From the NCBI GenBank assembly GCA_014843695.1, contig CM026401.1, positions 48,248,405 through 48,312,404 of the forward strand: a stretch of 64,000 nt of DNA, in the 5' to 3' direction. The DNA comes from Archivesica marissinica (lineage: Eukaryota; Mollusca; Bivalvia; Venerida; Vesicomyidae). This document shows, piece by piece, positions 35,292-44,200 of this stretch. The notes beneath the pieces are model-generated. The model was not told where the DNA came from. It did no database searches and saw only the letters and a list, made by a program, of their open reading frames with translations. Each line of letters begins with the position of its first letter. Position 1 is the first letter of the stretch. A program made the translations under genes and the position numbers.

Positions 35292-38200
35292 CTAAAACAA
35301 GAATAAGAGCATTGTAATACACTGTACATACAGCATATAAGCTTCAACTCTAAGCTTCCAAGCTTAGTCAATGTACATGATGCCAAAATAGTATTACCAA
35401 AGACCACTCCGAGATAGCAGACCTCCGCCACGCTGCAGCTAAATCTCCATTGTTGCCCCCACTTACTTAGCCTGGGTGCCAGTCTGTCGATTTTTCACTT
35501 TTTAACTTCTGGCAAAATGAGTTGATATGATCAGAAACTTAATAGTCTCGGTGTTAAAATATATTTATTTGACTGATCAGGCAAAATATATCGACGCCTG
35601 TTCCCAGGCTAGAGGACCCCCGATAGATGACCCGTCAGTCACAAGGTGCCCGGAAGTCACAAACGGGTACCCGGGAAGAACCACTGACCTTCCCAAGCAT
35701 AAATACATGTATAGCATCCATTGTTCATGGGAAGATTTCTTTTTATTCAAGTCTGAATCAAAGTATCCCATATGGTTGTATATACGTAAATAGGCAGAAG
35801 TGCATCTGCAGTCGAATGTAGTCCCAATAACTAATACAGTTCATGTTTCTTATATCAACGCCTGTTCCCAGGCTAATGGATACCAAGAAAAGCAGCTTAC
35901 AAGGCTACCCCTTACTTACAAAGATGAAGAATCCTTTTAAAAGAATTATGACAAAATTAACCTTTATCAATTGCACATTCCTTCCAATTTATTCAGTATT
36001 ATAATGTATAATGCCCAATAAATTGGTAGAAATGTGCAAGCAACATAGATCCAGATCATCGATGACGTAGCATCATGTCTGATCAGGATCTACGTTGTTT
36101 GCTATTCAACCAAGTGTATTAGCTCCACTATCCCAATAGCAAACAGCAAAGAGTCTGCCGTCTGCAAAAGCAGTGATCTAATCTGTGATTAGCAATTTAA
36201 GGGTTACCGGTAAATGGCCCCATCCACAATGATCTGTAGTCCACCTTCCGCCAAATTTCATGAATATCCGTATGTAACTTTTATCATAATACAGAGCAGA
36301 GGTTTTTCTTTTTCTTTTTTTTATCATTTTGAGGCCCTATCCATTTATTTCTTTATAAATGTACATTCCTTTTAATATATATTAACCAATATACACATAC
36401 CTCCACCAGTATACACACATACCTCCACCAGTATACACACATACCTCCACCAGTATACACACATACCTCCACCAGTATACACACATACCTCCACCAGTAT
36501 ACACATACCTCCACCAGTATACACACATACCTCCACCAGTATACACACATACGTATACACACATACCTCCACCAGTATATACATATACCTCCACCAGTAT
36601 ACACCACCTCCCAGTATACACATACCCCACCAGTATACACACATACCTCCACCAGTATACACACCCTCCACCAGTATACACACATACCTCCACCAATATA
36701 TACACATACCTCCACCAGTATACACATACCTCCACCAGTATACACACATACCTCCACCAGTATATACACATACCTCCACCAGTATACACATACCTCCACC
36801 AGTATACACACATACCTCCACCAATATATACACATACTCATACACATACCTCCACCAGTATACACACATACCTCCACCAATATATACACATACATACCTC
36901 CACCAGTATACACATACCTCCACTACACTACCTCCACCAGTATACACATATACAGTATACACATACCTCCACCAGTATACACACCTCCATATACACATCC
37001 TCCACCAGTATACACATACCTCCACCAGTATACATACCTCCACCAGTATACACATACCTCCACCATATACACACATACCTCCACCAGTATATACAATACA
37101 TACATACCTCCACCAGTATACAACCCTCCACCAGTATACAACCAATACACACCAGTCACATACCTCCACCAGTATACACACATACCTCCACCAGTATACA
37201 TACCACCAGTATACACACATACCTCCACCAGTATACACACACCAGTATACACACATACCTCCACCAGTATACACCAGTATACACATACCTCCACCAGTCA
37301 CCAGTATACACATACCTCCACCAGTATACACATACCTCCACCAGTATACACACCAGTATACACACCACCAGTATACACATACCTCCACCAGTATACACAT
37401 ACCTCCACCAGTATACACACCAGTACACACATACCTCCACCAGTATACACATACACCAGTATACCATACCTCCACCAGTATACACATACCTCCATCAGTA
37501 TACACATACCTCCACCAGTATACACATACCTCCACCAGTATACACACATACCTCCACCAGTATACACACATACCTCCACCAGTATACAATACCTCCACCA
37601 GTATACACATACCTCCACCAGTATACACACATACCTCCACCAGTATAACACACATACCTCCACCAGTATACACACATACCTCCACCAGTATACACACATA
37701 CCTCCACCAGTATACACATACAAACCCTCCACCAGTATACACATACCTCCACCAGTATACACATACCTCCACCAGTATACACACATACCTCCACCAGTAT
37801 ACACATACCTCCATATACACATACCTCCACCAGTATACCACCTCCACCAGTATACACACATACCTCCACCAGTATACATACCACCAACACATACCTCCAC
37901 CAGTATACACACATACCTCCACCAGTATACACATACCTCCACCAGTATACATACATACCTCCACCAGTATACACATACCTCCACCACATACCTCCACCAG
38001 TATACACACATACCTCCACCAGTATACACACATACCTCCACCAGTATACACACCCTCCACCAGTATACACATACCCCACAGTATACACATACCTCCACCA
38101 GTATAACACATACCTCCACCAGTATACACACATACCTCCACCAATATATACACATACCTCCACCAGTATACACACATACCTCCACCAATATATACACATA

Positions 38201-41200: not shown

Positions 41201-44200
41201 ATACCTCCACCAGTATACACACATACCTCCATATTATATACACATACCTCCACCAGCATACACACATACCTCCACCAGTATACACACACCTCCACCAGTA
41301 TACACATACCTCCATCAGTATACACATACATCCACCAGTATACACATACCTCCACCAGTATACACATACCTCCACCAGTATACACACATACCTCCACCAG
41401 TATACACACATACCTCCACCAGTATACACATACCTCCACCAGTATACACACATACCTCCACCAGTATACACATACCCCCACCAGTATACACATACCTCCA
41501 CCAGTATACACACATACCTCCACCAGTATACACATACCTCCATCAGTATACACATACCTCCACCAGTATACACACATACCTCCACCAGTATACACACATA
41601 CCTCCACCAGTATACACACATACCTCCACCAGTATACACACATACCTCCACCAGTATAAACACATACCTCCACCAGTATACACACATACCTCCACCATTA
41701 TTATATACACATACCTCCACCAGCATACACACATACATCCACAAGTATACACATACCTCGACCAGTATACACATACCTCCATCAGTATACACATACCTCC
41801 ACCAGTATACACACATACCTCCACCAGTATACACACATACCTCCACCAATATACACACATACCTCCACCAGTATACACATACCTCCACCAGTATACACAT
41901 ACCCCCACCAGTATACACATACCTCCACCAGTATACACATACCGCCACCAGTATACATACATACCTCCACCAGTATACACACATACCTCCACCAGTATAC
42001 ACATACCTCCACCAGTATACACATACCTCCACCAGTATACAACATACCTCCACCAGTATACACACATACCTCCACCAGTATACACACATAACTCCACCAG
42101 TATACACACATACCTCCACCAGTATACACACACATACCTCCACAGTATACACACATACCTCCACCAGTATACACACATACCTCCACCAGTATACACACAT
42201 AACTCCACCAGTATACACACATACCTCCACCAGTATACACATACCTCCACCAGTATACACACATACCTCCACCAGTATACACACATACCTCCACCAGTAT
42301 ACACACATACCTCCACCAGTATACACATACCTCCACCAGTATACACACATACCTCCACCAGTATACACATACCTCCACCAGTATACACATACCTCCACCA
42401 GTATACACATACTCACCAGTATACACACATACCTCCACCAGTATACACACATACCTCCACCGTATACACATAACTCCACCAGTATACACATACCTCCACC
42501 AGTATACACACACACCTCCACCAGAATACACATAACTCCACCAGTATACACACATACCTCCACCAGTATACACACATACCTCCACCAGTATACACACATA
42601 CCTCCACCAGTATACACACATAACTCCACCAGTATACACCATACCTCCACCAGTATATACACATACCTCCACCAGTATAACACATACCTCCACCAGTATA
42701 CACACATACCTCCACTAGTATAACATACCTCGACCATGACTTGTCTGCAGGCACCGCATGGTGTGATGATACTGTTTGACAAATCACTGAAATAATGATT
42801 ACAGACATTTACACAGGCAGTGTCATACCTTGGATTGTGTTCTAATGAGCGACATCGTTTGTTTTTTATTACCTCCCTTGTCAAATAAAGTATGATTTAT
42901 CCTCAAATGTATATGGTTCCCTTTATTAGGTATCCTTTGTTTTACTGCTGTTTACTTACCAGATGTCGACAGATGATAAATGTGATTTTATCAAAATCGT
43001 GTTAATTAATTTATGACAATTCCTTCCAAATTTATCCATTGTATATACGGTAAGACATCGGCCAGGATTTATTAATTTACTAATCATAAGATGAGAAAAC
43101 GGACGATAAATGATAGAAAGTTGTGCAAAGGAAACAACGATAAAAACAGAGGAAACTAATTAATATGACCTATCTCCCCCATAAAGAGTATTCAGGGGAA
43201 GTAACTGACCAATGTCTCTCATTAAATTATTAAGCTCATGATGATCAAGTCTCTGTCTGTATCATTGCACTATCCTACAAAAATCTAAAATTACTGATCT
43301 CTTCAGGAGGCGTCGCTCATATGGGCAACCGGTAGTGATGATAAATAAACGTAAAACACACACCAATAGCAATTGCATTGACCTTCCTGTGCCCTTCAGA
43401 TACAAGATTTAATGCAGCGCTATGAATATTTATAACACAAACGTTCCAATAGCAATGACCTTAAATGTTGTGCTATGTATATTTATATTCCAAACCTTAC
43501 AATATCAATGACCTTGAACTCCATGTGCCTTCAGATACAACATTAAATGCTGTGTTTTGTATATTTATACACAAACCTTCCAATGGCAATGACCTTGAAC
43601 CTCATATGGATACAACATTTAACACACAAACCTTCCAATGGCAATGACCTTGAACCTCATATGGATACAACATTTAACACACAAACCTTCCAATGGCAAT
43701 GACCTTGAACCTCATATGGATACAACATTTAACACACAAACCTTCCAATGGCAATGACCTTGAACCTCATATGGATACAACATTTAACACACAAACCTTC
43801 CAATGGCAATGACCTTGAACCTCATATGGATACAACATTTAACACACAAACCTTCCAATGGCAATGACCTTGAACCTCATATGGATACAACATTTAACAC
43901 ACAAACCTTCCAATGGCAATGACCTTGAACCTCATATGGATACAACATTTAACACACAAACCTTCCAATGGCAATGACCTTGAACCTCATATGGATACAA
44001 CATTTAACACACAAACCTTCCAATGGCAATGACCTTGAACCTCATATGGATACAACATTTAACACACAAACCGTCCAATGGCAATGACCTTGAACCTCAT
44101 ATGGATACAACATTTAATACACACACCTTCCAATGGCAATGACCTTGAACCTCATATGGATACAACATTTAATGCACAAACTTTCCAATGGCAATGACCT

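What the first reader, a model, noticed from the sequence alone, without database searches (positions are those of the whole stretch)
36386..42786. A 6.3 kb minisatellite grown from the 5' splice site of a cytidine deaminase exon
In transcript sense, exon 4 ends GTCGAG and is followed by donor GTATGTTATACTA, then GTGGAGGTATGTGTGTATAC, and so on for about 300 units. The repeat unit is a near-copy of the exon end plus donor, so each unit is a plausible 5' splice site (GAG|GTATGT differs from GAG|GTAAGT only at +4). The real donor is thus followed by hundreds of decoys. This could cause exon extension in steps of 20-22 bases, U1 titration, or recursive splicing. I know of no described case of a minisatellite nucleated at a splice donor at this scale.
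Basis: partly seen in the sequence, partly recalled or inferred. Interest (0 to 1): 0.95.

Follow-up and report, generated by a model that had tools for sequence, protein, structure and literature searches.

The report
Minisatellites seeded from splice donor sites
In a bivalve genome packed with short tandem repeats, copies of the last bases of an exon plus its splice donor have multiplied into long arrays in introns of two related cytidine deaminase genes, leaving the real splice site followed by many look-alikes; a small human precedent exists, but the size and repetition are unusual.

Summary
A 6,344-bp array (window 36385-42728, minus strand, about 306 units of 20-22 bp) starts at exon 4 of a cytidine deaminase gene. 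The last 8 exonic bases and the donor align in register as its first unit (score 33; 0 of 20,000 random 32-mers reach it; best 28). It holds 251 AG|GTATGT sites beyond the native donor. An exact 32-base stretch of the repeat occurs 42 times in the 1.54-Gb genome, all inside this array.

Intron 3 of the same gene carries 19 copies of exon 3's end plus donor. A paralogue 33 Mb away has its own array (about 20 units) starting at its exon 3 donor and matching its own exon. In these two genes 3 of 6 donors seeded arrays, 0 of 7 acceptors.

About 39% of 20 sampled 10-kb regions is minisatellite, and those arrays are not donor-enriched. Likeliest account: ordinary tandem duplication that covered a donor, then expansion in an intron that tolerates it because the first donor still defines the exon. 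Whether decoys are spliced is untested. Human IFI6 is a precedent in kind. U1 titration and recursive splicing are not supported.

The parts
42729..42786 (-). Exon 4 of the cytidine deaminase gene, 58 bp ([19 protein letters not shown]); its last 8 bases TGGTCGAG (42729-42736) are the exonic part of the seed unit
36385..42728 (-). Minisatellite filling most of intron 4: about 306 units of 20-22 bp (GGTGGAGGTATGTG(TG)TATACT), 251 AG|GTATGT sites besides the native donor; begins at the native donor
   Evidence: an exact 32-base stretch of the repeat has 42 of 42 genome hits inside it
35160..35291 (-). Exon 5, last coding exon ([11 protein letters not shown]...), joined by the native exon 4 donor to give the conserved protein
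48806..48917 (-). Exon 3 (...RKFKAIAIG), donor GGAAG|GTTTGA; seed of the intron 3 array
43569..44264 (-). 55-bp array, 12.7 copies, holding exon 3 end + donor (AGGTTCAAGGTCATTGCCATTGGAAG|GTTTGTGT)
43354..43568 (-). Longer units of the same array; the 136-bp period consensus matches exon 3 over 57 bp (52 exonic bases, 87.7%, E 4.5e-15)
45657..45775 (-). Two further units of the intron 3 array, cut off from the rest by the hAT-like insertion
44408..44449 (-). Unit of the intron 3 array on the other side of the hAT-like insertion
45939..45987 (-). Partial unit of the intron 3 array next to the 2.3-kb transposon
44481..45644 (.). hAT-like element (label recalled from its 8-bp duplication; Pfam found no domain in the one frame scanned) inserted inside an array unit, with the target-site duplication at 44473-44480 and 45645-45652
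45988..48333 (.). 2.3-kb element with 40-bp terminal inverted repeats (93% complementary) between exon 3 and the array
48539..48799 (.). Foldback element (70-nt arms, 90%) whose outer arm starts 6 bases into intron 3
50112..50228 (-). Exon 2; donor ACTG|GTAAGG without any derived array

Best explanation
A short segment spanning the end of exon 4 and its donor was tandemly duplicated, and the copy, lying in the intron, expanded by slippage or unequal exchange to about 306 units. The same happened at exon 3 of this gene and, probably independently, at exon 3 of a paralogue. Such duplications survive because they leave the original donor next to the exon, so splicing from the first donor still gives the normal mRNA, whereas a copy spanning an acceptor would put a false acceptor first. 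The array is therefore mainly a tolerated product of a minisatellite-saturated genome; its donors are probably used now and then, giving low-level exon 4 extensions. Shown here: derivation from the junction, locus specificity of the exon 4 array, three cases at donors and none at acceptors in two genes. Inferred: the duplication and expansion mechanism, first-donor dominance, low-level decoy use.
For: Junction aligns in register with the unit (score 33, 0 of 20,000 controls). Exonic 8 bases reproduced at 7 or 8 of 8 in 224 of 279 in-array sites. A 32-base exact stretch of the repeat is found only here, 42 of 42 hits. E-F-G after the junction's V in 22 of 22 relatives, so the exon is most likely ancestral. 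Intron 3: 19 copies of exon 3 end + donor, 57-bp match with 52 exonic bases, E 4.5e-15. Paralogue: 20 ungapped copies besides the exon itself, array starting at the donor, own-exon score 54 against 14-18 for the other gene's exon. Donors 3 of 6, acceptors 0 of 7. Splicing from the first donor gives the protein that aligns without a gap to relatives, and just 27 of 269 decoys keep the frame to the native stop. No extra constraint on the donor core in the units (0-2.3% substitutions; other columns 0-9.6%), as expected of a passive array. Tandem repeats are 38.7% of the sampled sequence.
Against: Most decoys pair with U1 better than the native donor (-8.8 against -6.9 kcal/mol; 298 of 1,315 in-array GT sites reach or beat it; exon 3: -7.9 against -4.9), so first-donor dominance is not obvious from strength. 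The two genes were reached because of the finding itself, so 3 of 6 is an ascertained sample; counting all 13 junctions P is 4e-3, or 0.04 for 2 of the other 12, and 0.08 and 0.24 at three times the seeding rate. Outside them 0 of 3 donors looked at by eye had a derived array. The exonic part of the exon 4 seed is only 8 bases. No RNA data, and no orthologous intron from another species.
Confidence: 0.66

Rival explanations
1. Decoy donors are routinely used: the array makes a ladder of exon 4 ends in 20-22-base steps, as the IFI6 minisatellite does on a small scale in humans, and this lowers or diversifies cytidine deaminase output.
For: Most decoys have stronger U1 pairing than the native donor; the exon 4 frame stays open for 1,839 nt of array and 27 of 269 decoys give a full frame to the native stop; published statement that IFI6 uses downstream repeat units as donors (passage of PMC4526556).
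Against: Only the first donor gives the protein that aligns without an insertion to relatives (inference); about two thirds of decoys shift the frame (93 + 86 of 269); units show no special constraint on the donor core.
Confidence: 0.2
2. Splice donors, or the transcribed exon end, are real hotspots for array birth in this genome, so donor-seeded arrays are a genome-wide class rather than chance survivors.
For: 3 of 6 donors against 0 of 7 acceptors; under random seeding a junction lies in a seed unit with probability 0.026, giving P = 3.3e-4 for 3 or more of 6 donors, or 6.5e-3 for 2 or more of the other 5; separate arrays at the same exon position in two paralogues.
Against: 66 arrays from the sampled regions are not enriched in donor-like units (mean rank 0.48); donor-motif clusters there 2 against 4 for the reversed control, and no excess for four narrower or variant motifs; 0 of 3 donors outside these genes; with three times the seeding rate P rises to 8e-3 and 0.05, and over all 13 junctions P is 4e-3 to 0.08.
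Confidence: 0.22
3. The array is a dispersed satellite that landed next to the exon and resembles the donor by coincidence.
For: The genome is full of arrays with similar base composition; one search listed many places on other contigs at 66-78% identity.
Against: Ten of those places were fetched and have other units; only L013 shares the GGAGGTATGT core, within a different 26-bp unit. The exact 32-base stretch occurs nowhere else (diverged copies would be missed). The exonic bases are shared in register.
Confidence: 0.03
4. The two exon 3 arrays were inherited from one array in the ancestral gene and kept similar to their own exons by gene conversion.
For: Same exon, same position, in both paralogues.
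Against: The two array units do not match each other (score 14, against 54 with the own exon) and their intronic halves look unrelated.
Confidence: 0.15

Closest known systems
Human IFI6 (6-16, G1P3) minisatellite providing multiple splice donor sites (Turri, Cuin and Porter 1995)
   Same: A minisatellite whose units can act as splice donors downstream of an exon; a passage of PMC4526556 states that two downstream repeat units are used as donors. Original paper not held.
   Different: Recalled: about 12-bp units, some tens of copies, with RNA evidence. Here 20-22 bp, about 306 copies, no RNA evidence, and two further donor-seeded arrays in the same gene and a paralogue.
Intron gain by tandem duplication of AGGT segments (Rogers 1989 model; potato and fission yeast cases, PMC4974935 and PMC3629103, passages read)
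   Same: Tandem duplication of a short segment holding a proto-splice site; in fission yeast tandem units make up the gained intron.
   Different: There an exon gains a new intron; here an existing donor is copied into an existing intron and no new exon boundary is evident.
Intronic VNTRs that alter splicing (ABCA7, PMC5954066; TERT intron 6, PMC3948165; search listings only)
   Same: Intronic minisatellite, variable, with reported effects on splicing.
   Different: As far as the listed titles and abstract openings go, those units are not presented as copies of the neighbouring splice junction.

Membership tests
IFI6-type minisatellite supplying splice donors | Tandem array lies at the 5' splice site and begins at the native donor | tested here: met
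   paralogue
IFI6-type minisatellite supplying splice donors | Units carry a donor consensus | tested here: met
   251 AG|GTATGT sites besides the native donor, in about 306 units
IFI6-type minisatellite supplying splice donors | Several units are used as donors in mRNA | not testable with these tools
   no transcript data available
Intron gain by AGGT tandem duplication | Tandemly repeated segment contains AGGT | tested here: met
   268 AGGT including the native donor
Intron gain by AGGT tandem duplication | A new intron interrupts formerly exonic sequence | tested here: not met
   the array lies in an intron whose flanking exons join into the conserved protein
Recursive (ratchet) splice sites | AG|GT preceded by a polypyrimidine tract | tested here: not met
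   16 nt upstream of the unit's GAG are 50% pyrimidine (consensus unit)
Dispersed satellite family | Same unit at other genomic places | tested here: not met
   exact 32-base stretch 42 hits, all in this array; ten similar places fetched have other units

The most novel reading that the evidence does not exclude
In minisatellite-rich genomes 5' splice sites are a recurrent birthplace of arrays, because a duplication there is invisible to splicing. Once present, the tract of spare U1 sites backs up the exon, so the native donor can decay: the three array-bearing donors are the three weakest of the six (-4.9, -6.7, -6.9 against -7.7, -8.5, -8.7 kcal/mol), a 1 in 20 outcome by chance. Donor-seeded arrays would then be a distinct class of intronic repeat that changes how exons are defined.
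Probability: 0.15. Interest if true: 0.8.

Novelty: new variant of a known kind. Interest (0 to 1): 0.57.

Why it matters
It is a natural experiment on how cells choose among hundreds of near-identical donors, at a scale (about 250 sites) far beyond the human precedent as recalled. If donor-seeded arrays recur across genes, they explain where part of the intronic minisatellite DNA of such genomes comes from and predict a measurable asymmetry between donors and acceptors. It also warns annotators: exon ends copied into introns can mislead gene prediction and RNA-seq mapping.

Tried and rejected
Dispersed satellite: not supported by the genome-wide exact pattern or by ten fetched look-alike arrays, one of which (L013) shares the GGAGGTATGT core within a different unit.

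Donor-likeness as a general property of minisatellites here: not supported (66 arrays, mean rank 0.48; motif clusters 2 against 4 in the reversed control).

The 35-bp array downstream of the paralogue's exon 4 was suspected to be donor-derived and is not (score 10, reached by 68% of random segments).

Selection to keep decoys: no sign in substitutions (the aligner places the 2-base length indel of the 20/22-bp forms inside GTATGTGTG, so gap rates there say nothing). Rfam: nothing at the gathering threshold in 33000-57000.

Wider exon survey: Pfam scan of 349 open frames (62 aa or more, tandem arrays masked, so exons inside masked arrays would be missed; 18 of the 20 sampled regions gave such frames). 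Besides transposon families and two weak DUF hits it found a deoxynucleoside kinase (L022, located by Pfam; no junction looked for), a sodium/calcium exchanger (L029), an astacin (L020) and a C-type lectin (L026; donor not examined), these three placed by recalled motifs and not by a per-frame Pfam call, and one dynein exon that I could not locate in three further calls (92, 93, 95; 30 frames). Donors of the exchanger, the astacin and a TNFR-like exon of the window were judged by eye to have no derived array.

Whether the exon 3 arrays are unique in the genome did not complete (server busy), nor was a genome-wide scan for triple AGGTAAGT.
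Full report
What is there. The window is C16:48248405-48312404 of a 1.54-Gb genome held as G000. A cytidine deaminase gene runs on the minus strand: exon 2 (50112-50228), exon 3 (48806-48917), exon 4 (42729-42786) and exon 5 (35160-35291), with consistent phases and GT-AG borders; exon 1 was not looked for systematically. Pfam confirms PF00383 and PF08211. The closest named proteins are bivalve, Mercenaria mercenaria at 77% and Ruditapes philippinarum at 72%, so the host is inferred to be a clam-like bivalve; no name is given by the tools.

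The array of the finding. It fills 36385-42728, directly after the exon 4 end. A circular alignment gives about 306 units, with a 2-base indel that makes the 20- and 22-bp forms. There are 251 AG|GTATGT and 267 AGGT besides the native donor, and no AGGTAAGT. The junction aligns in register over 8 exonic and 16 intronic bases (score 33; random 32-mers reach 28 at best, n = 20,000). Of 279 GTATGT sites in the array, 222 match the last 8 exonic bases at 7 of 8 and 2 at 8 of 8; of 196 distinct GTATGT contexts in 200 kb of sampled sequence, none reaches 7. An exact 32-base stretch of the repeat is found 42 times in the genome, every time inside this array; diverged copies would not be seen that way. 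The residues at this junction are conserved: E-F-G in 22 of 22 aligned relatives, the V before it in 14 of 22. The exon end is thus under coding constraint, and the array is most likely its copy, not the other way round.

Two more cases. In intron 3, 19 segments match the last 36 bases of exon 3 plus 6 intronic bases at 28-35 of 42, while the best match elsewhere in the window is 24. A longer unit (136-bp period) matches exon 3 over 57 bp, 52 of them coding, E 4.5e-15. These copies now lie 3.0-5.5 kb from exon 3, because transposons sit between: a foldback element whose arm starts 6 bases into the intron and a 2.3-kb element with 40-bp inverted repeats. A hAT-like element (recalled label) sits inside one array unit with an 8-bp target duplication, so the array is older than that insertion. 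A paralogous gene lies at C16:15.66 Mb, found by protein search. Its exon 3 ends GCTGTATCTTG|GTATGT and is followed at once by an array with 72-bp period (20 ungapped copies besides the exon, 21 CTTGGTATGTA sites; 22 copies by Tandem Repeats Finder) that carries 25-37 bases of that exon end plus the donor. Each exon 3 array unit matches its own exon (score 54) and not the other gene's (14-18), and the units do not match each other (14). They were therefore seeded separately, or have been homogenised separately.

Tally. Over the two genes, donors of exon 3, exon 4 and exon 3' have derived arrays; donors of exon 2, exon 2' and exon 4' do not; none of seven acceptors does (the exon 2 acceptor had a single copy at 70% or more in the exon-heavy setting). 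That script counts ungapped copies only and finds just 3 for exon 4, because the first unit has a 1-base gap; a gapped count gives 241 segments at 55% or more of the full score. The sample is ascertained: the window gene was handed to me because of the array, and the paralogue was fetched because it is its relative.

Background. Twenty 10-kb regions that I placed at round-number positions on nine contigs, without looking at content, are 38.7% minisatellite (75,287 of 194,729 bases; 66 independent arrays; region mean 37.6%, standard error 6.1). Using summed periods as the seed target, a random junction has a 2.6% chance of lying in a seed; 3 or more of 6 donors then has P = 3.3e-4, and 2 or more of the other five P = 6.5e-3. 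Over all 13 junctions, 3 or more has P = 4.2e-3 and 2 or more of the other 12 P = 0.038. Tripling the rate gives 8e-3, 0.05, 0.08 and 0.24. So the excess at donors is suggestive and no more. Units of the sampled arrays are not donor-like beyond shuffles, and donor-motif clusters in that sequence are no commoner than a reversed control (2 against 4; other motifs 1-1, 1-1, 0-2, 0-2). In the window several other arrays have related copies elsewhere, as dispersed repeats do. Array birth here is thus mostly indifferent to sequence; what may be special about donors is survival.

How it most likely works. A tandem duplication across a donor adds a copy of exon end plus donor inside the intron. If the first donor is used the mRNA is unchanged, so the change is tolerated and the array is free to grow. 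A duplication across an acceptor puts a complete false acceptor upstream of the true one, where scanning from the branch point would meet it first (established knowledge, recalled). This predicts donors over acceptors, as seen in this small sample. For exon 4 the first donor gives the protein that aligns without a gap to relatives. The array frame is open for 1,839 nt, but only 27 of 269 decoys give a full frame; the rest shift frame or meet a stop. The units show no special constraint at the donor core. Against simple first-donor dominance, most decoys pair with U1 better than the native donor (-8.8 against -6.9 at exon 4; -7.9 against -4.9 at exon 3; equal at exon 3'), so leakage into decoys is plausible. 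U1 energies are crude duplex values, not splice scores.

A lead. The three array-bearing donors have the three weakest U1 pairings of the six. Either weak donors tolerate duplication better, or spare donors let the native one decay. With n = 6 this is only a hint.

Known relatives. [quoted passage not shown] passages of all four were read, the original is not held. So the kind is known. I found no description of recurrent donor-seeded arrays or of hundreds of units in the listings of the searches made, which cover open-licence papers only. Intron gain by duplication of AGGT-like segments is a related process (passages).

Verdict. Observation confirmed and extended; origin well supported; functional effect open; 'no described case' not correct in kind.

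Noticed in passing
L019-L038 (20 sampled 10-kb regions of G000): About 39% of the sampled sequence is minisatellite-type tandem repeat, with individual 10-kb regions from 6% to 100%; unusually high.
   Followed up: partly
L039:2705-4311 (C16, cytidine deaminase paralogue): A separate donor-seeded 72-bp array starting at the paralogue's exon 3 donor; used in the main argument.
   Followed up: yes
L013:690-5935 (C5): 26-bp array whose unit contains GTGGTGGAG|GTATGTG, sharing the donor-like core with the exon 4 array in an otherwise different unit; no exon was recognised at its edge by eye.
   Followed up: partly
L029:8234-10000: A 20-bp array of about 92 units begins about 70 bases after the donor of a sodium/calcium exchanger exon, but does not look derived from the junction.
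   Followed up: partly
window 46330-46860 (-): The 2.3-kb element with 40-bp inverted repeats carries an open frame with a weak match (below Pfam's cut-off) to PF18628, a viral coat protein N-terminal domain.
   Followed up: no
window 55983-56486 (-): Cysteine-rich 168-aa frame without a Pfam hit; it resembles prokineticin/dickkopf-like proteins from memory only.
   Followed up: no
window 1022-1198 (+): TNFR cysteine-rich exon (PF00020, below Pfam's cut-off) with AG and GT borders read by eye.
   Followed up: partly
window 53207-53721 and 6797-7965: Minisatellites whose units match copies elsewhere in the window, suggesting that some arrays are seeded from dispersed repeats.
   Followed up: partly
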